The notes under the pieces are model-generated. The model ran no database searches, had not been told where the DNA came from, and saw nothing but the letters and a program-made list of their open reading frames with translations. A stretch of DNA of 34,957 bases, taken from Pseudobdellovibrionaceae bacterium. GTDB taxonomy: Bacteria > Bdellovibrionota > Bdellovibrionia > Bdellovibrionales > Bdellovibrionaceae. Position 1 is the first letter of the stretch. Each line of letters opens with the position of its first letter. Shown here piece by piece: positions 11,542 to 34,957 of this stretch. The position numbers were made by a program, and so were the translations under genes. Location: the NCBI GenBank assembly GCA_019637875.1, contig JAHBUW010000024.1, positions 1-34,957 on the forward strand, in the 5' to 3' direction.

Positions 11542-12555
11542 ATGTCATCCGTTGAGCTGAAGAACGTCTCGAAAAGTTTTGGCGAAACCGAGGTCTTGAA
11601 AAACATCTCGCTGAAGGTGGAATCCGGCGAGTTTCTGGTGCTCGTCGGCCCGTCAGGTTGCGGGAAGTCGACGCTTTTGCGGCTGATCGCGGGGCTTGAG
11701 ACCGCGACTTCGGGCGAAATCTGGATCGACGGCAAGAACGTGTCGCAGCTCGATCCCCGGGACCGCAATCTCGCGATGGTGTTTCAAAGCTACGCGCTGT
11801 ATCCGCACTTGAGCGTGCGCGAGAATCTGGCTTTCGGGCTCGCGCTGCAAGGGGTTTCGAAAGAGGAACAGAATCGCCGCGTGCAGGAGGTCGCCGACAC
11901 CTTGCAGATCGGACCACTCCTCGACCGTCGCCCGCGCGCGCTTTCGGGCGGGCAACGTCAGCGCGTGGCCCTGGGGCGCGCTTTGGTTCGCCGCACGAAG
12001 CTGATCTTGTTCGACGAACCTTTGTCGAATCTGGACGCCGCCTTGCGCGCGCAGATGCGTTTTGAAATCAAAAAACTTCACCAGCTGACCGGCGCGACGA
12101 TGGTGTACGTGACGCACGATCAGGTCGAGGCGACGACGCTCGGTGACCGGATCGCGGTGCTGAACAAGGGCGTGGTCGCGCAGATCGGCTCGGCGCACTC
12201 GATTTACGAAAAGCCCGAGTCGCGTTTCGTGGCGTCCTTCATCGGGACGCCCGAGATGAACTTTCTGCCGGGCGAGCTCGTCGGGCAAAACGGCAAGGTC
12301 GTCGGCGTCCGGCCCGAGGACTTCGTGGTCAACGGCCGCGAATCTTCGGGGACCCCGGAGTTCGACGCCACCTTTGAACTTGAAGAGTACCTGGGCTCGC
12401 AATCACTCGTGCACACGAAGGTGGGCGACATGGGCGTGCGTTTCCTGACGCCGGAGTCGCTCGGCAAAAAACCGGGCGCCTCGATCAAACTGGGAACGAA
12501 GCCGGGCCGCCTGCACGTCTTCGATCCGAAGTCGGAAGCGCGGATCAACAGTTAA
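11542..12555 (+). CDS. malK: MalK/UgpC-type ABC transporter ATPase
   Basis: 337 residues. AAGGATAAG overlapping the malG stop serves as ribosome site. All ATPase motifs are intact: Walker A GPSGCGKST (36-44), Q-loop in MVFQSYALYPH, signature LSGGQRQR from residue 134, Walker B LILFDEP (154-160) and H-loop His192 in VTHD. A C-terminal TOBE-type regulatory domain follows from about residue 240 (FIGTPEMNFLPG, VVGVRPEDF). It is somewhat shorter than E. coli MalK (371 residues), so the inhibitory surface may differ. It powers the MalEF/MalG importer. The family's ATPases are sometimes shared by several sugar importers. Confidence 0.93.
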   Translation: MSSVELKNVSKSFGETEVLKNISLKVESGEFLVLVGPSGCGKSTLLRLIAGLETATSGEIWIDGKNVSQLDPRDRNLAMVFQSYALYPHLSVRENLAFGLALQGVSKEEQNRRVQEVADTLQIGPLLDRRPRALSGGQRQRVALGRALVRRTKLILFDEPLSNLDAALRAQMRFEIKKLHQLTGATMVYVTHDQVEATTLGDRIAVLNKGVVAQIGSAHSIYEKPESRFVASFIGTPEMNFLPGELVGQNGKVVGVRPEDFVVNGRESSGTPEFDATFELEEYLGSQSLVHTKVGDMGVRFLTPESLGKKPGASIKLGTKPGRLHVFDPKSEARINS

Positions 12556-12579
12556 TCCGATTCGGGAGGGGGACATCCG

Positions 12580-14130
12580 ATGACGGCCGAATATTCACAT
12601 GACTGGATCCGACGTTGGTGGCGCAAGCTGCGGCCGCAGCCGTTCGCGCCCGCTTTGCTGTGCGCGCTTCTCTTCGCGGGAGAGGTCTTCGCCGGGCCCG
12701 CGCGGTTTGACGTACCGGAATTTTTGAAACGCCCCGTGACCACGCCCGGAATCGGTTCCCAGCCGCGTCCGAGCGGCGGGATCCGCACCGTCATGATCCA
12801 GATGTTCGAGTGGCCGTGGAAGGACCTCGCGCGCGAGTGCGAACAGGTTTTAGGACCCATGGAGATCGCGGCGGTACAGGTGTCGCCTCCGCAAGAGCAT
12901 TTGATGCTGGGTCAGAACTCGTGGTGGGAACGCTATCAGCCCGTCAGCTACAAGTTGGTCTCGCGCGGCGGAACGGAAGCCGAGTTCCGCGACATGGTGA
13001 AGCGCTGCCAGGCCGTGGGCGTCGACGTTTACGTGGACGTCATCTTGAATCACATGGCGGGCATCCGCGAGGGGCGCGGTTTCGCGGGCACCCTGTACAC
13101 GAAGTACAACCACCGGGGTCTCTTCATACCCGGGGACTTCAACGACTGCGGCCTTTACGGCGACAACCAGATCCGCAATTATAAAGACCGTTTCGAGCTT
13201 CAGTACTGCGAGCTTCTGGGTCTCGCCGATCTGAAAACGTCGAGTCCCTCGGTGCGCCGGACGTTGACCACGTACCTGGACGGGCTCGTCGACATGGGCG
13301 TCGCGGGCTTCCGCCTGGACGCCGCGAAACACATGCCGGCCGATGATCTGCGCGCGATCGTGGCGGCGGTGAAAAAGCCCGTCTATTACGTCTCGGAAAC
13401 CCTGATCGGTCCGGGCGACCCCGTCGGCATCTCGGAGTACACGCCGTTCAGCGACGTGAACGTTTTCCCCTACGCTTACGATCTGGCGCGCGTGCTGCGC
13501 GGCGGGTATCTCGCGAGCTGGTTGAACTTCCAACGTATCTATCCCGCGAGCGATCTGTCGGTCGTGTTCGTCGAGAATCACGATACGCAGCGCGAGCAGC
13601 CGCTGCAGTCGCTCTCGCGCACGAATGAACCCGAATATTTCAAGCTCGCCGAAGTCTTCATGCTGACGTGGCCCTTCGGTTATCCGCAGCTCTTCTCGGG
13701 TTACCGGTTCGTCTCTTACGACGAGGGACCGCCCATCGACGGCAAGGGGTACACGACCTCGCCCCTGGGCGCGGCGGGCGACTGCCTGGCGCCGTGGCAG
13801 TGCGAGCACCGGGCGACGCACGTGCGGAACTTGGTGCGCTTCCGTAACCGGACGGCCGGTGTGTTCACAGCGACGAAGACGTGGTCGGCGGGCGGCGAGA
13901 TCTTCGCGTTCAGCCGCGGGCATCTGGGTTTCACGGTGATCAACGGGCGCGCGACGGAGCTTGCGGGCGCGGCGATCCCGACCGACTTGCCCGACGGCGA
14001 CTACTGCGATCAGGTGACGGCGTCCGGGACCCACTGCGCGCGCCGCTACTCGGTGCGGGGTGGCCATTTCCGGGGCGACGTCCCCGCGCGCACCGCGATC
14101 GTTCTTCTGAATGAGGAGTCCTCGAAATGA
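12580..14130 (+). CDS. Secreted animal-type alpha-amylase (GH13)
   Basis: 516 residues, start supported by GGGAGGGGG. The N-terminus is a long signal peptide with basic RRWWRKLR and cleavage after EVFA (residue 38). The sequence follows animal pancreatic-type amylases closely: MFEWPWKDLARECE, VQVSPPQEH, SWWERYQPVSYKL, DVILNHM, GVAGFRLDAAKHM, FVENHDTQR. Catalytic residues are D247, E273 and D335. Of the three chloride ligands of that group, Arg245 and Asn333 are present. The third position, in GYPQLFSGY, is Gln370 instead of Arg or Lys. The enzyme should cut alpha-1,4 bonds in the periplasm or outside. It ends in an ATGA overlap with the kinase gene. Confidence 0.92.
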   Translation: MTAEYSHDWIRRWWRKLRPQPFAPALLCALLFAGEVFAGPARFDVPEFLKRPVTTPGIGSQPRPSGGIRTVMIQMFEWPWKDLARECEQVLGPMEIAAVQVSPPQEHLMLGQNSWWERYQPVSYKLVSRGGTEAEFRDMVKRCQAVGVDVYVDVILNHMAGIREGRGFAGTLYTKYNHRGLFIPGDFNDCGLYGDNQIRNYKDRFELQYCELLGLADLKTSSPSVRRTLTTYLDGLVDMGVAGFRLDAAKHMPADDLRAIVAAVKKPVYYVSETLIGPGDPVGISEYTPFSDVNVFPYAYDLARVLRGGYLASWLNFQRIYPASDLSVVFVENHDTQREQPLQSLSRTNEPEYFKLAEVFMLTWPFGYPQLFSGYRFVSYDEGPPIDGKGYTTSPLGAAGDCLAPWQCEHRATHVRNLVRFRNRTAGVFTATKTWSAGGEIFAFSRGHLGFTVINGRATELAGAAIPTDLPDGDYCDQVTASGTHCARRYSVRGGHFRGDVPARTAIVLLNEESSK

Positions 14131-15218
14131 CGAAGTCCTACAGCATCGGCCTGGATCTGGGCGGAACGAAACTCGCGTGCGCGCTGGTCGACCACACGGG
14201 ACAGATCCTGGCGTTCCAGAAGGAATCGATTTTGTCCTTGAAGGTCGACCCGAAGACCGGTCCGACCAAAATCGTGGGCGTGATGGGCGAGATGGTCGCG
14301 GGGATGAAGAAACGTTTCCCGGAGTGTTTCAAGAAGGGCGTCTTCCGCGGGGTGGGCCTGGCTTCGGCGGGCCCCCTGAACGTGGAACTCGGCGAGATCA
14401 CGCATGCCGCGAACTTTCCGGGCTGGAAGCGCGTGAAGATCCAGCGCCTGCTGGAAGATGAGATGCGCCGTCGCCGGATCTGCGACCGCGTGGAATTCCA
14501 GAACGACGCGATCGCGGCGTCGCGCGCGGAGGGCTGGATCGGCGGCGCGCAGGGACTGCGGAGCTTCGCGGTCGTCACGATCGGAACCGGCATCGGTACG
14601 GGCGTGATCTTCCGCGGTCACCCGCTGCAGGATCGCGGGATGGGCTCCGAGCTTGGCCACCTGATCCTGAACTCGATGAACATCAAAACCGCGAAGGACC
14701 TCGATCACCACACGGTCGAAGGCGTCGCTTCGGGGACGGGAATTTTGCGCCGGGCGCGCACGGAGCTCGGGCTCAAAGTCGCAAGCGTCGAAGAGCTCGT
14801 AGATCTGGCCGAAGCGCAGCCTTTGTTCGACGACGCGGCCGATGCGCTCGCCGCCCTCTGCTATAATCTGTCGATCGGCTTTAATCTGGAGAAGATCCTG
14901 TTTTCGGGCGGCCTCATCAAGGTGCGCCACCTGTACTGGAACCGCCTGAAGGCGCGCTACAAAGCCCTGATCACCGAGTTCAATCCGGAGTTCGGCTGCC
15001 CGCTCGTCGTGGCGAAAGCGATGAACCAGGCGGGCGTCATCGGCGCCGCCCGCCTTCCTTACCATACCGAAACGGACGTCAAACCGGCCCCGAAAAAAGG
15101 TGCCCCGGGCAAAAAAGCCGCCACGCTCACGAAGAAAAAGAAGCCGGCGTCGCCCCGTCGTCGGGCTGCGCGAAATGCCGCTTCGGGCCGCCAGCTCGAA
15201 ATGAGCGGACTCTCATGA
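14127..15218 (+). CDS. ROK-family sugar kinase (probable glucokinase) with basic tail
   Basis: 363 residues. The ATP site DLGGTK is at 10-15, the catalytic base is D127 in EFQNDAIAAS, and the phosphate loop is IGTGIGTGVIF. The ROK signature region GMGSELGHLIL follows. The Cys-rich zinc motif of many ROK glucokinases (CxCGxxGC) is absent, its place being taken by DLDHHTVEGVASGTG. After residue about 315 the chain ends in a Lys/Arg/Ala/Pro-rich tail (KKGAPGKKAATLTKKKKPA, SPRRRAARNA). That tail is not part of the ROK fold and looks nucleic-acid- or polyphosphate-binding. Its place in the operon suggests phosphorylation of glucose set free from maltodextrin. Glucose is the most likely but not the only possible substrate. 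Confidence 0.88.
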   Translation: MTKSYSIGLDLGGTKLACALVDHTGQILAFQKESILSLKVDPKTGPTKIVGVMGEMVAGMKKRFPECFKKGVFRGVGLASAGPLNVELGEITHAANFPGWKRVKIQRLLEDEMRRRRICDRVEFQNDAIAASRAEGWIGGAQGLRSFAVVTIGTGIGTGVIFRGHPLQDRGMGSELGHLILNSMNIKTAKDLDHHTVEGVASGTGILRRARTELGLKVASVEELVDLAEAQPLFDDAADALAALCYNLSIGFNLEKILFSGGLIKVRHLYWNRLKARYKALITEFNPEFGCPLVVAKAMNQAGVIGAARLPYHTETDVKPAPKKGAPGKKAATLTKKKKPASPRRRAARNAASGRQLEMSGLS

Positions 15219-15230
15219 AGAAAAAACCCG

Positions 15231-15297
15231 ATTTACTTCCGGCGCTGGAAGTAAATCTGAACCTTGTCTTAGCGTTACTTCCGGCGCCGGAAGTGAA
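15231..15297. repeat. Two tandem copies of a palindromic TTACTTCCGGCGC element
   Basis: The first copy is ATTTACTTCC-GGCGCT-GGAAGTAAAT (15231-15256). The second is TTACTTCCGGCGCCGGAAGT plus GAA (15275-15297), with a perfect 18-bp palindrome at 15277-15294. The copies differ at two positions. They fill most of the 93-bp gap between the convergent kinase and maltoporin genes. They may act as a bidirectional terminator, although T-tracts are lacking, or be a small REP/BIME-like element. Confidence 0.65.
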
Positions 15298-15311
15298 TTC
15301 CGGCCGGTTCT

Positions 15312-16640
15312 TTAGAACCAAACTTCCGTCTGCACGCCGATGGAGTCGATCTCGGTTTTGCCTTGGGCCGTCGTCCCGTTCGCGGCGCCGACGTTCGCCT
15401 GATTCCAGGCCGTACGCGAATAGTACGCGCGGACGACCGGACGCGACCAGTAGCCTTTCGCCAAGGACAGCTGCGGCGCGATCGTGAAACGCGCGAGGTT
15501 GCGCGAACCCAGGCCGTCGGCCTCGTCCACGATGTGCGACACCCCCGCCTGGAAAATCAGACTGACGTTGTCGGTGAACCAGTACATGGGCCGCACGCCC
15601 GCCGACAGCCAGCGAAAGCGCGTGCCCGTCGAAGTGCCGCGGTCGAGTTCGTCGTACATGAACGCGAGCTGTCCCGACCACTTCGTCGTCTCCCATACGG
15701 TGGCGTTCCAGGCGCGCAGTCGCTGCGCTCCCGGCACCGTGCACGACGCGTCCGTCGTATCTTGGCAGTCCTTCACGAGCTCGCCCCCCGGCCCCATCGT
15801 GCTCATCACGCCTTCACCGTACGCCATCCCGAATTCGTTGTTCACGCCCTCGTAGATGGTGGAGTTCAGCTTCGCGGCGAAAAAGCCGCCCGTGGATTTA
15901 CGATAGTCGGTGCCCGTCGCCGGATCTTTCGCCGGCGGCGTCGTCGCGGCGACGCCCCACAAGGACAACCAGCCCGCCGGCGTCCCCCAGCCCTCGGTGC
16001 GCAGATGAAGACTTGTCTTCGCCGCGATTCCGACCTCGGTGCGCACGTCGCCCGAACCGTTGATCTCGTTCGCCTGCGCATTTTGGATGACCGCCAAGGA
16101 CCAGGTCCCGTAGTCCGTCTTGATGCCGCCGATCCCGCCGCCGGGTCCCGACATCGCGACCGGATAGTAGTCGTTCAGGTGCACGTCGCCCCAGCGGTAG
16201 AAGCGTTTCCCCGCCCAAGCCGTGAAGGGGGCCCCCGCGTAATACCCACCCTCGGAGTAGACCTCCCGCATGACCCACACGTTACCCCCGCGCAGTCCCC
16301 CGCCCGTCGGCACCGAGGGCGCCTCCCAGTCCGTGCGGTTGTCGTACACCACCGCGAAGTTCGCGAAGAAGCGGAAGAAGGGATCGCCGTCCTGCGCGGG
16401 CTTCAGCACCCACGCGCCGAAACCGAATTCCCCGTAGGTCGCGCACTCGTTCCCCAGCCGGAACTCGTTCCCCCACGCGCCGGGATTGTTGATACACTCC
16501 TGCGCGCCCCCGACGCCGTTCGCGCCCGACGACGACCGCAGATACATCTGCAGCTCCGGGGTCAGCGCCGCCCGCGCCCCGCCGCCCGCGAAAACCGAAA
16601 CCATCACCACGCAACCCAACAAAACACGCTTCAATTTCAT
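15312..16640 (-). CDS. lamB: LamB-type maltoporin
   Basis: 442 residues, close to the 446 of the E. coli LamB precursor. The signal peptide ends in GGGARA near residue 24. LamB hallmarks are FRLGNECATYGEFGFG near the N-terminus, KRFYRWGDVHLNDYY, MSGPGGGIGG, the late strand RPVVRAYYSRTAWN, and the outer-membrane C-terminus GVQTEVWF ending in Phe. It forms a trimeric outer-membrane channel for maltodextrins. It is convergent with the maltodextrin operon, not part of it, and therefore has its own promoter in the gap at 16641-16821. The ATG at 16640 has AAGAGA as a weak ribosome site. Confidence 0.93.
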   Translation of the reverse strand: MKLKRVLLGCVVMVSVFAGGGARAALTPELQMYLRSSSGANGVGGAQECINNPGAWGNEFRLGNECATYGEFGFGAWVLKPAQDGDPFFRFFANFAVVYDNRTDWEAPSVPTGGGLRGGNVWVMREVYSEGGYYAGAPFTAWAGKRFYRWGDVHLNDYYPVAMSGPGGGIGGIKTDYGTWSLAVIQNAQANEINGSGDVRTEVGIAAKTSLHLRTEGWGTPAGWLSLWGVAATTPPAKDPATGTDYRKSTGGFFAAKLNSTIYEGVNNEFGMAYGEGVMSTMGPGGELVKDCQDTTDASCTVPGAQRLRAWNATVWETTKWSGQLAFMYDELDRGTSTGTRFRWLSAGVRPMYWFTDNVSLIFQAGVSHIVDEADGLGSRNLARFTIAPQLSLAKGYWSRPVVRAYYSRTAWNQANVGAANGTTAQGKTEIDSIGVQTEVWF

Positions 16641-27490: not shown

Positions 27491-27551
27491 ACGTTGACAT
27501 CTTTTTCACCTCAACCCTCAAGGCGCGACGACCGATAAGTAAGTCGTGAAG

Positions 27552-30500
27552 ATGCTTCAGGGATTTGCACTTCGAAGACTGACGATCGCGATTGCCGTTT
27601 CCACCATGGTGGGAGCGGCTTTGCCGTCATTTGCGGATTCAAATCAGCTGGTCACGTACCAGGGACGCATCCTGCGTCCGGACGGAACTCCCCTCGAAGG
27701 CACGATCGATTTCCAAATCAAGATCTTCAGCCCCGGTCCGTCGAAGTGTCTGCTGTGGTCGGAACGTCAAACGGTCCCGATGCAAGGTTCAAAAGGCGCG
27801 TTCTCGCTCGAGATCGGTAAAGACGTGAACCGTTTGACCGGTCCCACCGGCGGCGGCGCGACTTCGTTCGGTCAAGTGTTCGTCAACCACCCGAACCTCG
27901 TGATCCCGAGCGCGCAGTGTAACACCGGTTATACCGGCTACACCTCGAACTTCGCGGACGATCGCACGATCAGCGTGACGTTCTCGGATGCGGGCCAAGA
28001 AATCCGCGTCGTCGACCTTCCGGTGAAGTCGGTCCCCTTCGCGATGCAAGCCGAGCAAATCTCGGGCTACTCGGTGAACTACCTCTTCAAGGTCGCCGGC
28101 CCCGCACAACCCGGAGTGAAAGCGGCCACGCTCTTCTCGCGCGATGCGGTCGACCTGCTTTGGGAGCTCGCCGAAAACCAGGATCTCGAAGGTAAGCAAC
28201 TGCATAACGTCGGCACTCCCATCGTTGGCGGAGACGCCGCCAACAAAGACTACGTCGACACCCAAATCGCATCGCAAGGTTCGCTGGGGATCGCCACCCT
28301 GACGGGCGACGCGAACATCCTCGTCGGAACCGTCGGCAATGCACGCAACCTGAGCCTCGGCACAACGGGCGTCGCTGCGGGCACGTACGGCGCGGTCGCC
28401 CCCACGGGCGTGCTGATCCCGGTGATTCAAGTCGATATGTGGGGCCGGATCACTTCGGCCAACAACCAGGCCATGCCCGTCGCCGATGGCGCAGGTCAGC
28501 TGGGACTGATCACCGTCGACACCACAAATGGATTGAGTGTTACGAACGGCACCTTGGGTCTGAATTTGACCAACCTGTCAGGAGCGAACTTCGGTGCGCA
28601 AGCGCAGAACGTCGTCTTCGCAGGCCCCGCCAGCGGCGGTTCCGGCCCCGTCTCTTTCCGTCAACTGGTCGAAGAAGATATTCCGGTTCTGGCGGCGACG
28701 GGCAAAGTTCAAAACTCTGCGACCACCGCGACGCCGGCACTGACCAACGACGCGATCATCGCGCGTGACGCCACCGGCGCCTTCACCGCATCCGCCGCGT
28801 TCTTGAACTATCTGGCTTTGGATAACGGTCTGCATGCGGGCACCTCTTCCGCAATCCTGCTGTCCGCGCCGATGGGCGCGAGCTACAGTCTGGTGTTCCC
28901 GAACACCGCGCCCCAAGCCGGCGACATCCTCTCATTTGACGGTTTGGGAAATATGGTGTGGGTCCCGGCCGGATCGATGGGCATGACGGGCCTGGAGCTC
29001 GTCGTACCGGCGGGCGAGATGACCGTTTCCGCCCCCGTCGGTCCCGGCGAAGGGACACTTTCCATCGGCTGGCGCGATCAAAATGCGCGTTTGGTTTTCG
29101 CGGCACCCATCGCGGGTTCGGGTCAACCGACCTTCCGCTCGCTGGATCCGCTCGACATTCCGGATCTCGATGCTTCGAAAATCAATAGCGGCACTTTTGA
29201 TGTCGCCCGCATTCCCGATTTGGATGCCGCGAAGATCACGACCGGAACCCTGGGCGTTCAACGTGGCGGCACGGGTCTCGACGGTTCGGTCGCGACCACC
29301 GGCCAACTCTTGATCGGCACGGGCACGGGTGGCTTCGCCCTCGGAAACCTCTACGGCGGCTCGGGCGTTTTGATCGACAATCAATCGGGCTCGATCGGTA
29401 TCTCGTTCAATCCTTCGATGGCGGGAGTGGTCACTCATGTCGGCGCGGAAGTGCCGAGCTTCATGAGCGTTTCGCCTTCGGGTATCTCGTCTTCGGGCAC
29501 ATTCCAGTTCTCTTATAATAGTCAGGCCCAGAATCTGGTCTTCGCGGCGCCCACGGGCGGCTCGGGCGCACCGGACTTCCGCGCGCTGCACCCCTCGGAT
29601 ATTCCGAACCTCGATGCCGCGAAGATCACCTCGGGGACACTCGACGTCGCACGCATCCCCGATCTGGATGCGGCGAAAATCACGTCGGGCACTCTGCCCG
29701 TCACTCGGGGCGGAACCGGACTCGCGCCGCAGGTTGCGGATGCGAATCGCGTTTACGGCATCAACGCCGCGGGCGACAATTCGGAATTCAAAACGATGGT
29801 CGCCGGCTCCGGCGTGATGATCAATCACACCCAAGGCTCGATCGCTTTCACTTTCGATCCGGCCGCCGCGGGCGTCGTCACCAACGTGGGACTCACCGCG
29901 CCAACTTCGATCTTCAACGTCTCGGGCTCGGCCGTCACCGGCGCGGGCACCCTGGGACTGCATTTGAACTCGCAAAATGCGACGACCGTCCTTGCGGCGC
30001 CCACGGGTGGTTCGGGGGCGCCGGAGTTCCGTGCGCTGACTCCTTACGACATTCCCTATCTTGATACTTCGCATTTGATCACCGGCCTTTTGCCCGTCGA
30101 ACGCGGCGGCACGGGACTGGACGCGACGTTGGCGACCGATGGTCAGCTCTTGATCGCGGACGGCACCGGTGGCTTCGCGCTGAATACTTTGACGGCGCTT
30201 TCGGGCGTCGTGATCCAGAATTCTTCGGGTTCGATCGCGATCGGCTTCGATCCTTCGGCGGCGGGTGTGGTCACAAACGTGGGCCTCAGCGCGCCGACTT
30301 CGGTCTTCACCGTCAGCGGATCGGCCATCACCGGCGCGGGCACCTTGGGTCTGACCTTCAACTCGCAAGACACGGCCACCGTGTTCGCGGCGCCCACGGG
30401 CGCTTCGGGCGTGCCCTCGTTCCGCTCGCTTGTCGCTTCGGATATCACCGCGGGCACTTTGGATGTCGCGCGGATTCCCGATCTCGATGCCGCGAAAATC

Positions 30501-33500
30501 ACTTCGGGAACCTTGCGTGTCGAGCGCGGCGGCACCGGCCTTGACGGTTCGGTCGCCTCTTCGGGACAACTCTTGATCGGAAACGGCACCGGCTTCGCCC
30601 TCAATACCTTGAGTGCGGGTTCGGGCGTGACCATCATCAACGGCGCGGGCTCGATCTCGATCGGTTTCGATCCCTCGGCCGCGGGTGTCGTCACCAACAT
30701 CGGCGCGACCGTGCCGAGTTATATGTCCGTAGCCCCGGGCTCGATCTCTTCGGCCGGCACTTTCGCATTCGATTTCAATGCGCAGAACCAGAACTTGGTC
30801 TTCGCGGCACCCACGGGTGGCTCGGGCGCACCGGGCTTCCGTCAACTGGAGCCTTCGGACATTCCCGCTTTGGACGCTTCGAAGATCACTTCGGGGACAC
30901 TCGACGTCGCACGTATTCCGGACCTGGACGCGGCGAAAATCACGTCGGGCACTCTGCCCGTCACTCGTGGCGGAACCGGACTCGCACCGCAAGTCGCGGA
31001 TGCGAACCGCGTTTACGGCATCAACGCCGCGGGCGACAACTCGGAGTTCAAAACGATGGTCGCCGGCTCCGGCGTCATCATCAATCACTCGCAAGGCTCG
31101 ATCGCGTTTACGTTTGATCCGGCCGCCGCGGGCGTCGTGACCAACGTGGGACTCACCGCGCCGACCGCACTTTTCACCGTGAGTGGATCGGCCGTCACCG
31201 GCGCGGGAACATTGGGACTCACACTGAACTCGCAGAATCAGAACTTGGTCTTCGCCGCACCCACGGGTGGTTCGGGTGCACCCGGCTTCCGTCAGTTGGA
31301 GCCTTCGGATATCCCGGTCTTGGACGCTTCGAAAATCACTTCGGGCACACTGGATGTCGCACGTATTCCCGACCTCGATGCGGCGAAAATTACGAGCGGA
31401 ACTCTGCGCGTTGAGCGCGGCGGCACCGGCCTTGACGGTTCGGTCGCTTCTTCGGGGCAACTCTTGATCGGAAACGGCACCGGCTTCGCGCTCAATACTT
31501 TGAGCGCAGGCTCGGGCGTCACCATCATCAACGGCGCAGGCTCGATCTCGATCGGTTTCGATCCCTCGGCTGCAGGCGTCGTGACCAATGTGGGCGCGAC
31601 CGTGCCGAGCTATATGTCCGTCGCGCCGGGCTCGATCTCTTCGGCTGGCACTTTTGCCTTCGACTTCAATACACAAAATCAGAACTTGGTCTTCGCCGCA
31701 CCCACGGGTGGTTCGGGTGCACCGGGATTCCGTCAGTTGGAACCTTCCGATATCCCGGTCTTGGATGCTTCGAAGATCACTTCGGGCACACTGGATGTCG
31801 CGCGGATTCCGGATCTGGATGCCGCGAAAATCACGAGCGGAACTCTGCGTGTTGAGCGCGGCGGTACCGGTTTGGATGGATCCGCAGCCGCCTCGGGACA
31901 ACTCTTGATCGGAAACGGCACTGGCTTCGCGCTCAATACTTTGAGCGCAGGTTCGGGCGTGACCATCACGAACGGCGCGGGCTCGATCTCGATCGGATTT
32001 AATCCGTCGGCCGCAGGTGTGGTCACCAACGTGGGTTTGACCGCGCCGACATCCGTCTTCGATATCACGGGTTCGGCCGTCACTGGCGCCGGTACTTTGG
32101 GCCTGAGCTTCCTTTCGCAAGAGACCGCGACCGTCCTCGCGGCGCCCACGGGCGCTTCGGGCGTTCCGTTCTTCCGTTCGCTGATCGCTTCGGACATCAC
32201 CGCGGGCATCTTGGATGTCGCACGTATTCCCGATTTGGATGCCGCGAAGATCACGTCGGGCACTCTGCGTGTTGAGCGCGGCGGCACCGGCCTGGACGGA
32301 TCCGCCGCTTCTTCGGGACAACTCTTGATCGGAAATGGCACCGGCTTCGCGCTCAACACTTTGAGCGCGGGTTCAGGCGTGACCATCACCAACGGCGCAG
32401 GCTCGATCTCGATCGGCTTTAATCCCTCGGCCGCGGGTGTCGTCACGAATATCGGCGCAACTGTACCGTCTTATATGTCGGTTTCGCCTTCGTCGATCTC
32501 GTCGGCGGGAACTTTCGCCTTCGACTTCAACTCGCAAAATCAGAATCTCGTGTTCGCGGCGCCCACGGGCGGTTCGGGCGCGCCCGGCTTCCGTCAGTTG
32601 GAGCCTTCGGATATCCCGAACCTCGACGCCGCGAAGATCACTTCGGGCACGCTTGATGTCGCGCGCATTCCCGATCTGGATGCCGCGAAAATCACGAGCG
32701 GAACTCTGCGCGTTGAACGCGGTGGTACCGGCCTGGATGGTTCCGCAGCAGCCTCGGGACAACTCTTGATCGGAAATGGCACCGGCTTCGCCCTCAATAC
32801 TTTGAGCGCAGGTTCGGGCGTGACCATCACGAACGGTGCGGGCTCGATCTCGATCGGCTTTAATCCCTCGGCCGCGGGTGTCGTGACCAACGTGGGTCTG
32901 ACCGCTCCGACCGCTCTGTTCACCGTGAGCGGTTCGGCCGTGACCGGCGCGGGCACTTTGGATCTGTCCTTGAATGCGCAAAATCAGAATCTCGTGTTCG
33001 CGGCGCCCACGGGCGGCTCGGGCGCCCCGGGATTCCGTCAACTTGATCCTTCGGACATCCCGAGCCTCGACGCCGCGAAAATCGCTTCGGGCACGCTCGA
33101 CGTTGCACGTATTCCGGATCTGGATGCGGCGAAAATCACGTCGGGCACTCTGCCCGTTACTCGCGGCGGAACGGGCCTCGCGCCCCAGGTTGCGGACGCG
33201 AATCGTCTGTACGGAATCAACTCGGCGGGCACGAACTCGGAATTCAAAACCGTCGTCGCCGGTTCGGGCGTGACCATCACTCATTCGACGGGTTCGTTGG
33301 CGTTTAGCTTCGATCCGTCGGCGGCGGGCGTCGTCACCAACGTGGGTTTGACCGCGCCGACCTCGGTCTTCGATATCACCGGCTCGGCCGTCACTGGCGC
33401 CGGCACTTTGGGGCTGAGCTTCCTTTCGCAAGAGACCGCGACCGTCCTCGCCGCGCCCACCGGCGCGTCGGGTATCCCCTCGTTCCGTTCACTGATCGCT

Positions 33501-34957
33501 TCGGATATCACCGCGGGCATCTTCGATGTCGCACGCATTCCCGATCTGGATGCCGCGAAGATCACGTCGGGCACTCTGCCCGTCACACGCGGCGGTACCG
33601 GCCTGGATGGTTCGGCCGCGGCTTCGGGACAACTCTTGATCGGAAATGGCTCAGGCTTCGCGCTCAACACTTTGAGTGCGGGTTCGGGCGTGACCATCAC
33701 GAACGGTGCGGGTTCGATTTCGATCGGCTTTAATCCCTCGGCCGCCGGTGTCGTCACGAACGTCGGCCTCACCGCGCCGACCGCCGTCTTCAGCGTGACC
33801 GGTTCGGCCGTCACGGGCGCGGGCACCTTGGGACTGACCTTCAATCCGCAAAACCAAAACCTCGTTTTTGCCGCGCCCACGGGCGGCACCGGCGCTCCGG
33901 AATTCCGTCCGTTGGATCCTTCCGACATTCCCAACCTGGATGCGGCAAAGATCACGAGCGGAACTTTGGATGTCGCGCGGATTCCGGATCTGGATGCCGC
34001 GAAGATCACTTCGGGCACTCTGCGCGTCGAGCGCGGCGGTACCGGTCTTGACGGTTCGACCGCGGCCTCGGGACAACTTTTGATCGGAACCGGCACGGGC
34101 TTCGCGCTGAATACGCTCACCGCGGGTTCGGGCGTCACCATCACGAATGCCGCAGGCTCCATCGCGATCGGCTTTAACGCTCAGGCCGCCGGCGTCGTCA
34201 CGAATATCGGCGCGACGGTGCCGTCTTATATGTCGGTTTCGCCCTCGTCGATTTCCTCGTCGGGCACTTTCGCCTTCGATTTCAACTCGCAGAACACAGC
34301 GACCGTGTTCGCGGCACCCACGGGCGCTTCGGGCGTCCCCTCGTTCCGCTCCCTCGTCGCTTCGGATATCACTGCGGGCACTTTCGATGTGGCACGTATC
34401 CCCGATCTGGATGCGGCGAAGATCACGTCGGGCACCTTGCCCGTCACCCGCGGCGGAACCGGACTCGCGCCCCAGGTTGCGGACGCGAACCGTTTGTACG
34501 GAATCAACGCGGCGGGCACGAATTCCGAATTTAAAACTGTCGTCGCCGGCTCGGGCGTCACCATCACTCATTCGACGGGTTCGTTGGCGTTTAGCTTCGA
34601 TCCGTCGGCCGCGGGCGTCGTCACCAACGTGGGTTTGACCGCTCCGTCGTCGGTGTTCGACGTGACCGGTTCGGCCGTGACCGGCGCGGGCACCTTGGGC
34701 CTGAGCTTCCTTTCGCAAAATACCGCGACCGTTCTCGCGGCACCCACCGGCGCGTCGGGTGTCCCCTCGTTCCGTTCGCTGATCGCGTCGGATATCACTT
34801 CGGGCACTTTCGATGTCGCACGTATCCCCGACCTCGATGCAGCGAAAATCACCACCGGCACACTCCCCGCGTCGCGTGGCGGAACCGGGCTTGATGGTTC
34901 GACGGCGGCCTCGGGACGTCTGCTGATCGGCACCGGTTCGGGCTACGCCCTCGGCAA
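27552..34957 (+). CDS. Giant tail-fibre-like repetitive surface protein, 3' end outside the window
   Basis: The frame is open from ATG 27552 to the right edge, at least 2468 codons. A GTG at 27546 is an alternative start. A signal peptide ends in LPSFA near residue 25. An N-terminal beta domain of about 150 residues follows (LVTYQGRILRPDGTPLEG, VVDLPVKSVPFAMQA). Near residue 228 comes GGDAANKDYVDTQIA, a motif common in phage tail fibres and in large Bdellovibrio surface proteins. From residue about 481 the protein consists of repeats with VARIPDLDAAKITSGTL and RGGTGL. Such chains usually form trimeric beta-rich fibres, sometimes ending in an intramolecular chaperone. Export without an autotransporter domain in view leaves the anchoring route open. 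It is likely a surface adhesin or fibre. Confidence 0.85.
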   Translation, partial: MLQGFALRRLTIAIAVSTMVGAALPSFADSNQLVTYQGRILRPDGTPLEGTIDFQIKIFSPGPSKCLLWSERQTVPMQGSKGAFSLEIGKDVNRLTGPTGGGATSFGQVFVNHPNLVIPSAQCNTGYTGYTSNFADDRTISVTFSDAGQEIRVVDLPVKSVPFAMQAEQISGYSVNYLFKVAGPAQPGVKAATLFSRDAVDLLWELAENQDLEGKQLHNVGTPIVGGDAANKDYVDTQIASQGSLGIATLTGDANILVGTVGNARNLSLGTTGVAAGTYGAVAPTGVLIPVIQVDMWGRITSANNQAMPVADGAGQLGLITVDTTNGLSVTNGTLGLNLTNLSGANFGAQAQNVVFAGPASGGSGPVSFRQLVEEDIPVLAATGKVQNSATTATPALTNDAIIARDATGAFTASAAFLNYLALDNGLHAGTSSAILLSAPMGASYSLVFPNTAPQAGDILSFDGLGNMVWVPAGSMGMTGLELVVPAGEMTVSAPVGPGEGTLSIGWRDQNARLVFAAPIAGSGQPTFRSLDPLDIPDLDASKINSGTFDVARIPDLDAAKITTGTLGVQRGGTGLDGSVATTGQLLIGTGTGGFALGNLYGGSGVLIDNQSGSIGISFNPSMAGVVTHVGAEVPSFMSVSPSGISSSGTFQFSYNSQAQNLVFAAPTGGSGAPDFRALHPSDIPNLDAAKITSGTLDVARIPDLDAAKITSGTLPVTRGGTGLAPQVADANRVYGINAAGDNSEFKTMVAGSGVMINHTQGSIAFTFDPAAAGVVTNVGLTAPTSIFNVSGSAVTGAGTLGLHLNSQNATTVLAAPTGGSGAPEFRALTPYDIPYLDTSHLITGLLPVERGGTGLDATLATDGQLLIADGTGGFALNTLTALSGVVIQNSSGSIAIGFDPSAAGVVTNVGLSAPTSVFTVSGSAITGAGTLGLTFNSQDTATVFAAPTGASGVPSFRSLVASDITAGTLDVARIPDLDAAKITSGTLRVERGGTGLDGSVASSGQLLIGNGTGFALNTLSAGSGVTIINGAGSISIGFDPSAAGVVTNIGATVPSYMSVAPGSISSAGTFAFDFNAQNQNLVFAAPTGGSGAPGFRQLEPSDIPALDASKITSGTLDVARIPDLDAAKITSGTLPVTRGGTGLAPQVADANRVYGINAAGDNSEFKTMVAGSGVIINHSQGSIAFTFDPAAAGVVTNVGLTAPTALFTVSGSAVTGAGTLGLTLNSQNQNLVFAAPTGGSGAPGFRQLEPSDIPVLDASKITSGTLDVARIPDLDAAKITSGTLRVERGGTGLDGSVASSGQLLIGNGTGFALNTLSAGSGVTIINGAGSISIGFDPSAAGVVTNVGATVPSYMSVAPGSISSAGTFAFDFNTQNQNLVFAAPTGGSGAPGFRQLEPSDIPVLDASKITSGTLDVARIPDLDAAKITSGTLRVERGGTGLDGSAAASGQLLIGNGTGFALNTLSAGSGVTITNGAGSISIGFNPSAAGVVTNVGLTAPTSVFDITGSAVTGAGTLGLSFLSQETATVLAAPTGASGVPFFRSLIASDITAGILDVARIPDLDAAKITSGTLRVERGGTGLDGSAASSGQLLIGNGTGFALNTLSAGSGVTITNGAGSISIGFNPSAAGVVTNIGATVPSYMSVSPSSISSAGTFAFDFNSQNQNLVFAAPTGGSGAPGFRQLEPSDIPNLDAAKITSGTLDVARIPDLDAAKITSGTLRVERGGTGLDGSAAASGQLLIGNGTGFALNTLSAGSGVTITNGAGSISIGFNPSAAGVVTNVGLTAPTALFTVSGSAVTGAGTLDLSLNAQNQNLVFAAPTGGSGAPGFRQLDPSDIPSLDAAKIASGTLDVARIPDLDAAKITSGTLPVTRGGTGLAPQVADANRLYGINSAGTNSEFKTVVAGSGVTITHSTGSLAFSFDPSAAGVVTNVGLTAPTSVFDITGSAVTGAGTLGLSFLSQETATVLAAPTGASGIPSFRSLIASDITAGIFDVARIPDLDAAKITSGTLPVTRGGTGLDGSAAASGQLLIGNGSGFALNTLSAGSGVTITNGAGSISIGFNPSAAGVVTNVGLTAPTAVFSVTGSAVTGAGTLGLTFNPQNQNLVFAAPTGGTGAPEFRPLDPSDIPNLDAAKITSGTLDVARIPDLDAAKITSGTLRVERGGTGLDGSTAASGQLLIGTGTGFALNTLTAGSGVTITNAAGSIAIGFNAQAAGVVTNIGATVPSYMSVSPSSISSSGTFAFDFNSQNTATVFAAPTGASGVPSFRSLVASDITAGTFDVARIPDLDAAKITSGTLPVTRGGTGLAPQVADANRLYGINAAGTNSEFKTVVAGSGVTITHSTGSLAFSFDPSAAGVVTNVGLTAPSSVFDVTGSAVTGAGTLGLSFLSQNTATVLAAPTGASGVPSFRSLIASDITSGTFDVARIPDLDAAKITTGTLPASRGGTGLDGSTAASGRLLIGTGSGYALG
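28992..34957 (+). repeat. Array of 14 in-frame 390-450 bp repeats inside the giant gene
   Basis: Repeat units, defined as starting after VTN(V/I)G, begin at 28992 (divergent, unit 0), 29445, 29892, 30285, 30705, 31152, 31596, 32037, 32457, 32898, 33348, 33768, 34212 and 34635 (cut by the edge). All starts keep the reading frame. Most units contain AAPTG, VARIPDLDAAKI and RGGTGL. Units differ by exchange of whole sub-segments rather than by scattered changes, and several share long nearly identical DNA stretches. Unit lengths fall in two main classes, 420-423 and 441-450 bp, plus one of 393 bp. Confidence 0.92.

What the first reader, a model, noticed from the sequence alone, without database searches (positions are those of the whole stretch)
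28992..34957. Combinatorial cassette mosaic in a giant surface protein
Units 1 and 3-13 are made of three segments, each with two alleles, separated by conserved anchors. Front: S (ATVPSYMSVSP) or L (LTAPTSVFDITGSAVTGAG). Middle: N (QNQNLVFAAPTGGSG, longer) or T (TATVLAAPTGASG with SLIASDITAG, 7-8 residues shorter). End: R (RVERGGTGLDGS with SGQLLIGNG) or P (PVTRGGTGLAPQVADANR). Read in order, units 1 to 13 are SNP, L-divergent-R, LTR, SNP, LNR, SNR, LTR, SNR, LNP, LTR (chimeric), LNR, STP, LTR. Six of the eight possible combinations occur, and only STR and LTP are missing. The anchors AAGVVTN, AAPTG and KITSGTL are the same in nearly all units, so crossovers there keep the frame. This looks like a system that shuffles surface modules by homologous recombination, changing both length and order.
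Basis: partly seen in the sequence, partly recalled or inferred. Interest (0 to 1): 0.82.

Follow-up and report, generated by a model that had tools for sequence, protein, structure and literature searches.

The report
Bdellovibrio-type fibre with mosaic shaft
A predatory bacterium of the Bdellovibrio family carries a giant phage-tail-like surface fibre whose repeated shaft was pieced together by old exchanges between its own repeats, but the diverged DNA gives no sign that it is still being shuffled as a variation system.

Summary
Thirteen shaft units (29418-34955), plus a diverged unit 0 (28992-29417), are mosaics of front (S/L), middle (N/T) and end (R/P) types. Segment trees reject one another (AU p<0.001), the PHI test is significant even on third positions, and exchange tracts are visible at synonymous sites.

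The interpretation as a shuffling system is only partly supported. Codons are close to saturation: dS medians are 0.5-1.1 while dN medians are 0.03-0.14, codon identity never exceeds 0.85, and the longest exact repeat is 50 bp. The exchanges are old, confined to this gene, and under purifying selection. Six of eight combinations is what independence predicts.

All six types occur in related fibres elsewhere, and the 'missing' LTP occurs in another genus. N/T is the count of an 18-aa sub-repeat.

The gene is a mosaic adhesive trimer (MAT) fibre of Bdellovibrionaceae: NCBIfam Bdello_MAT_N scores 88 bits against a cut-off of 60. The window is cut at a contig end, so the tip is missing. Orthologous MATs in sister species keep nearly the same length despite diverged codons. 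This is a new, giant member of a known family; variation between isolates could not be tested.

The parts
27546..34957 (+). MAT-family fibre gene, 5' part (2470 codons, no stop; cut by contig end). GTG 27546 or ATG 27552 start
   Evidence: window is one end of G000:C24
27552..27638 (+). signal peptide (MLQGFALRRLTIAIAVSTMVGAALPSFAD), read by eye
   Evidence: sequence inspection
27615..28058 (+). Bdello_MAT_N domain (residues 24-171)
   Evidence: NCBIfam NF053851.1, 88.2 bits, cut-off 60, E 4.9e-25; homologous to the N-domain of Bd2133, 34% over 143 aa
28059..28991 (+). neck between N-domain and array (ANKDYVDTQI; fibre-like, partly unit-like)
   Evidence: weak unit-like match (residues 354-385)
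29418..29864 (+). unit 1, S-N-P
29865..30257 (+). unit 2, L-divergent-R (single 18-aa sub-repeat)
30258..30677 (+). unit 3, L-T-R
30678..31124 (+). unit 4, S-N-P
31125..31568 (+). unit 5, L-N-R
31569..32009 (+). unit 6, S-N-R
32010..32429 (+). unit 7, L-T-R
32430..32870 (+). unit 8, S-N-R
32871..33320 (+). unit 9, L-N-P
33321..33740 (+). unit 10, L-T-R with P-type PVT before RGGTGL (junction inside the end segment)
33741..34184 (+). unit 11, L-N-R
34185..34607 (+). unit 12, S-T-P
34608..34955 (+). unit 13, L-T-R, incomplete at the contig end

Best explanation
[quoted passage not shown] The array arose by tandem duplication and by exchange of unit segments within the same gene (unequal crossing-over or gene conversion). 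Breakpoints lie in the anchors AAGVVTN, QN..FAAPTG, DVARIPDLDAAKITSGTL and RGGTGL, using segment types that already existed in the wider fibre superfamily. These exchanges are old. Since then purifying selection has kept the protein units nearly constant while synonymous sites drifted to near saturation, which itself now hinders recombination. The mosaic is a record of how a long shaft was built and its length set; it is not a present-day variation switch. Shown: N-domain membership, mosaic, intragenic old tracts, purifying selection, shared segment vocabulary. Inferred: trimer, surface display, prey contact by a tip outside the window, spacer role of the shaft.
For: MAT N-domain above the curated cut-off and homology to Bd2133. 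The family is Bdellovibrionaceae: a B. bacteriovorus Bd2133 fragment is 100% identical in G003. The domain is present in most genomes of the family. Full-length paralogue C19 (5498 aa) has the same N-domain and related units, an S74 tail, and matches to solved MAT structures 8OL4, 8ON4, 8OML and 8OJN. Units match tail-fibre PHROG 31660, E 1.6e-48. Mosaic: PHI, AU and tract tests. Age and selection: median dS 0.54-1.12, dN 0.03-0.14; codon identity 0.61 against a saturation baseline of 0.45, max 0.85; the same in other MAT genes (1 of 78 near-identical window pairs at >=0.95 codon identity). Exchange within the gene only: 16 tracts inside C24, none with C15, C19 or C2. Segment types elsewhere. 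Length stable between sister species: 1976/1957 aa with only an N-terminal gap, 1850/1851 aa (94.6% identity), 1573/1541 aa.
Against: The gene is cut at a contig end, and so is the C15 paralogue; 3' MAT halves lie at the ends of C3 and C21. Repeats too alike to assemble may sit in the missing part, so recent copies could be under-counted. Exact repeats of 30-50 bp do exist (21 pairs), about the reported bacterial minimum for RecA pairing (<=30 bp, PMC8918686), so rare exchange remains possible. One HD100 MAT gene has a 149-bp exact repeat (L227), so recent duplication does occur in the family. Monomer structure models were useless (pLDDT 41 and 54), so fold and trimer are not shown here.
Confidence: 0.82

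Rival explanations
1. An active shuffling (contingency) system: homologous recombination at the anchors changes unit order and number in populations to alter the exposed surface.
For: Tract ends coincide with anchors; segment types are combined freely; several of the longest exact matches lie at anchors; the frame is kept at every junction.
Against: No recent tract; best codon identity 0.85; 21 exact repeats of 30 bp or more, none above 50 bp. Protein units are under purifying, not diversifying, selection. No donor cassettes shared with paralogues; no RT/DGR. Orthologous MATs keep their length and order.
Confidence: 0.08
2. Simple tandem duplication with divergence, the segment pattern being due to parallel change under structural constraint.
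For: Units obviously arose by duplication; neighbours are slightly more alike (Spearman -0.20, p=0.01).
Against: Segment trees reject each other (AU p<0.001); PHI is significant on third positions; synonymous tracts with different partners for different segments of one unit.
Confidence: 0.05
3. An assembly artefact: short reads joined wrongly between repeats.
For: The contig breaks inside the array; 30-contig assembly.
Against: The longest exact repeat is 50 bp, shorter than usual reads and assembly k-mers; the reading frame is intact over 2470 codons; some 15-50% of codons differ between units, which anchors reads.
Confidence: 0.03
4. Synonymous divergence between units is itself selected, to stop the giant gene from collapsing by recombination.
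For: Same pattern in many MAT genes.
Against: Codon identity between units is above, not below, the random level (0.575 against about 0.45), and close units are not more diverged than distant ones. Time alone suffices.
Confidence: 0.05

Closest known systems
Mosaic adhesive trimer (MAT) fibres of Bdellovibrio bacteriovorus (Bd2133, Bd1334, Bd2439, Bd3182 and others; PMC10769870; NCBIfam NF053851)
   Same: Signal peptide, MAT N-domain (88 bits, cut-off 60), phage-like fibre region; paralogue C19 ends in an S74 domain as 13 of 21 HD100 MATs do.
   Different: Far longer (>=2470 aa; paralogue 5498 aa; HD100 MATs typically about 1,000 aa); shaft is a 13-14-unit array with two types per segment. The parts of the paper read describe mosaicism of tips, not of shaft units. 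The tip is not in the window.
Phage tail-fibre proteins with GGTG-type units (PHROG 31660, 9625)
   Same: Units match tail-fibre families; the middle segment is found in 78 viral loci.
   Different: Bacterial gene with signal peptide among ordinary chromosomal genes (sugar ABC ATPase, amylase, ROK, LamB), not a prophage.
Phase or antigenic variation by gene conversion (pilE/pilS type; recalled from general knowledge)
   Same: Segment-wise mosaic with conserved anchors.
   Different: No donor cassettes, no recent identical tracts, purifying selection.
Polymorphic intragenic tandem repeats, e.g. Legionella pneumophila (PMC2639597)
   Same: In-frame repeat arrays in bacterial proteins.
   Different: Several of those vary in copy number between strains; here the DNA of the repeats is diverged and no strain comparison exists.

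Membership tests
MAT superfamily | signal peptide followed by the conserved ~130-aa N-terminal beta domain | tested here: met
   NF053851.1 at residues 24-171, 88.2 bits over cut-off 60; 34% identity to the Bd2133 N-domain; signal peptide by eye
MAT superfamily | phage-tail-fibre-like shaft | tested here: met
   phrog_31660 tail fiber protein, 1.6e-48, 9 stretches
MAT superfamily | C-terminal tip: S74 chaperone/protease or non-S74 adhesive fold | tested here: inconclusive
   Gene cut by the contig end. Met in paralogue C19 (PF13884, 56.6 bits; PDB 8OL4, 8ON4, 8OML, 8OJN). 3' MAT halves lie at the ends of C3 and C21.
MAT superfamily | homotrimer, displayed on the predator surface | not testable with these tools
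   Monomer models pLDDT 41 and 54
MAT superfamily | occurs as a multigene family in Bdellovibrionaceae | tested here: met
   Own genome 8 N-domain matches; 120 of 369 phylum genomes over cut-off, no control genome; HD100-like G003 identified by a 100% Bd2133 fragment
Recombination-driven antigenic variation system | long, nearly identical tracts between expressed copy and donors | tested here: not met
   Longest exact match 50 bp in the gene, 31 bp to C15 and 29 bp to C19; codon identity <=0.85
Recombination-driven antigenic variation system | diversifying selection on exposed segments | tested here: not met
   dN/dS about 0.03-0.22 within every segment type (ratio of medians)
Recombination-driven antigenic variation system | unit order or number differs between close isolates | not testable with these tools
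   Only genome of its genus held; MATs of sister species have stable length
Diversity-generating retroelement target | reverse transcriptase in the genome | tested here: not met
   PF00078: no match in own genome; found in 3 of 14 control genomes

The most novel reading that the evidence does not exclude
MAT shafts evolve by slow, frame-preserving segment exchange at shared anchors across Bdellovibrionota, so that fibre length and shaft surface are tuned over species time from a common vocabulary of alternative segments. In the unassembled part of this gene the same exchange may still be running.
Probability: 0.15. Interest if true: 0.6.

Novelty: new member of a known kind. Interest (0 to 1): 0.36.

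Why it matters
MAT fibres are leading candidates for how predatory bacteria recognise many kinds of prey. Work so far has looked mainly at the tips. This gene shows how a very long shaft is built: alternative segments, exchanged within the gene at fixed anchors, then frozen at the protein level. It also gives a simple test, protein identity against codon identity between repeats, that separates an old mosaic from a live variation system.

Tried and rejected
Structure prediction of three units and of one unit: pLDDT 41 and 54, so no fold search was made. Active shuffling: rejected on synonymous divergence. Assembly chimaera: rejected on the 50-bp longest repeat. DGR: no reverse transcriptase. 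Selection for codon divergence between neighbours: no sign. Exchange with paralogues C15, C19 or C2: no tract. Pfam has no model for the units. The PDB has no sequence relative of the units. One scan of genome contigs found only distant Verrucomicrobia, Harrisonbacteria and similar MAGs. Literature searches for selected synonymous divergence in repeat proteins gave nothing useful.

Full report
WHAT IS THERE. The window is one end of contig C24 of a 30-contig, 3.98-Mb genome. On the + strand an ORF opens at 27546 (GTG; ATG at 27552) and runs without a stop for 2470 codons to the contig end. It has a signal peptide, a MAT N-domain (below), a neck, a diverged unit 0 (28992-29417), and 13 units of 131-150 aa, the last one cut. 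Three details are added. The N/T difference is the number of an 18-aa sub-repeat, IPxLDAxKITSGTLxVxR: two in N, one and a half in T, one in unit 2; paralogue C19 has a run of four. RGGTGL is a further junction, because units 10 and 13 have P-like residues before it and R-type sequence after it. The number of combinations seen, six of eight, is what free combination gives (mean 6.6), and no pair of segments is associated.

IS THE MOSAIC REAL? Yes. Trees of the front, middle and end segments reject one another (AU p <= 3e-4). PHI is far below its permutations for all sites and for third positions alone (p = 0.0005, the floor of 2000 permutations). With the protein held fixed and codons redrawn as a null, 16 tracts of excess codon identity remain, each joining a stretch of one unit to the matching stretch of another. 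Partners change at the anchors: unit 5 shares its middle with unit 6 but its end with unit 3; unit 12 shares its front with 8, its middle with 3 and its end with 9. Some tracts cross unit borders, and one spans a whole unit (7 = 10). This is what duplication of blocks plus intragenic exchange leaves behind. No such tract joins the gene to its paralogues on C15, C19 or C2.

HOW OLD IS IT? Old. Within a segment type, median dN is 0.03-0.14 and median dS 0.54-1.12. Where amino acids agree, codons agree in 0.58-0.61 of cases, against about 0.45 for random synonymous choice. The closest 40-codon pair reaches 0.85 and none reaches 0.95. The longest exact repeat is 50 bp; redrawn codons give 29 on average and 47 at most in 100 trials. 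Paralogues and other MAT genes look the same. In 40 MAT genes, most from single-contig genomes, 1 of 78 near-identical window pairs reaches 0.95 codon identity. Recent copying is therefore possible in the family (L227 has a 149-bp exact repeat) but rare. As a yardstick, orthologous MATs of sister species whose codons mostly agree in only 0.4-0.75 of cases still align end to end: 1976 and 1957 aa with only an N-terminal gap, 1850 and 1851 aa, and 1573 and 1541 aa with 32 gap positions. Shaft length and order are thus stable over species time in the cases examined. These MATs have fewer repeats than the window gene, so the comparison is indirect.

WHAT IT IS. Residues 24-171 match NCBIfam NF053851.1, Bdello_MAT_N, at 88.2 bits against a cut-off of 60, and align with the N-domain of Bd2133, a founding MAT (34% over 143 aa; profile E 7e-15 against that one sequence). 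The taxonomic family is Bdellovibrionaceae, because genome G003 holds the Bd2133 fragment at 100%. MAT_N is found in 120 of 369 genomes of the phylum over cut-off and in none of 14 control genomes; the window's genome has eight matches. The full-length paralogue on C19 (5498 aa) has the same plan, carries an S74 domain (PF13884), and matches the solved MAT structures 8OL4, 8ON4, 8OML and 8OJN (codes). The array units match tail-fibre PHROGs. The published MAT work (PMC10769870) describes surface display, trimeric fibres and exchange of tips; it does not describe mosaic shaft units in the passages read. All six segment types have relatives in fibres of other genera and families; the middle segment is also found in 78 viral loci. 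LTP, one of the two combinations absent from the window, is present in genome G042. The segment vocabulary therefore predates this gene.

HOW IT LIKELY WORKS. Shown: a MAT-type N-terminus, a fibre shaft of repeated units, old intragenic segment exchange, purifying selection. Inferred from the MAT family: export, trimerisation, anchoring by the N-domain, a tip beyond the contig end that touches prey, and a shaft that mainly sets reach and flexibility, so that unit number and the 18-aa sub-repeat count matter more than which type is used. Strong constraint on the units (dN/dS about 0.03-0.22) fits a structural shaft better than a diversifying surface.

LIMITS. The gene is cut by the contig end. 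The C15 paralogue is cut in the same way, and 3' MAT halves begin or end contigs C3 and C21, so the assembly fails inside these genes and more similar repeats may be hidden there. Only one genome of the genus is held, so variation between isolates is untested. Structure models were too poor to use. Exact blocks of 30-50 bp (21 pairs) are at or above the reported bacterial minimum for RecA pairing (PMC8918686), so rare exchange is not excluded.

Noticed in passing
L025 (G000:C15:1-2824, minus strand): 5' half of a second MAT gene (941 aa, MAT_N 82 bits) running off the contig start, with four shaft units (one L-N-R, three L-T-R; the last reaches the contig end).
   Followed up: partly
L219 (G000:C3:1-4920 +) and L220 (G000:C21, minus strand, at contig end): Two 3' halves of MAT-like fibres with S74 tails begin at contig ends; they are candidate continuations of the C24 and C15 genes.
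   Followed up: partly
L026:2446-18939 (G000:C19, minus strand): A 5498-aa open frame for a complete MAT with a run of four 18-aa sub-repeats, super-units of about 385 aa and an S74 tail; far longer than the MATs described in HD100.
   Followed up: partly
L118 (G000:C2, 2100-aa MAT-like ORF): A 100-bp exact self-match at an offset of 18 bp, so a recent short tandem array lies in another MAT-like gene of the same genome.
   Followed up: no
L227 (G003, HD100-like genome): A MAT gene with a 149-bp exact internal repeat, a candidate for recent intragenic duplication in Bdellovibrio.
   Followed up: no
window 28932-32321, minus strand: A 1129-aa open frame antisense to the array, probably an effect of codon bias in the GC-rich repeat.
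   Followed up: no
window 11542-16640: Sugar locus: ABC ATPase with TOBE domain, alpha-amylase-type enzyme, ROK protein, and LamB porin on the other strand, in a predatory-bacterium family.
   Followed up: no
window 28137-28277 (ORF residues 198-244): Weak sequence match (E 0.002) to a solved phage tail-spike chain, 9m4d, just after the MAT N-domain.
   Followed up: no
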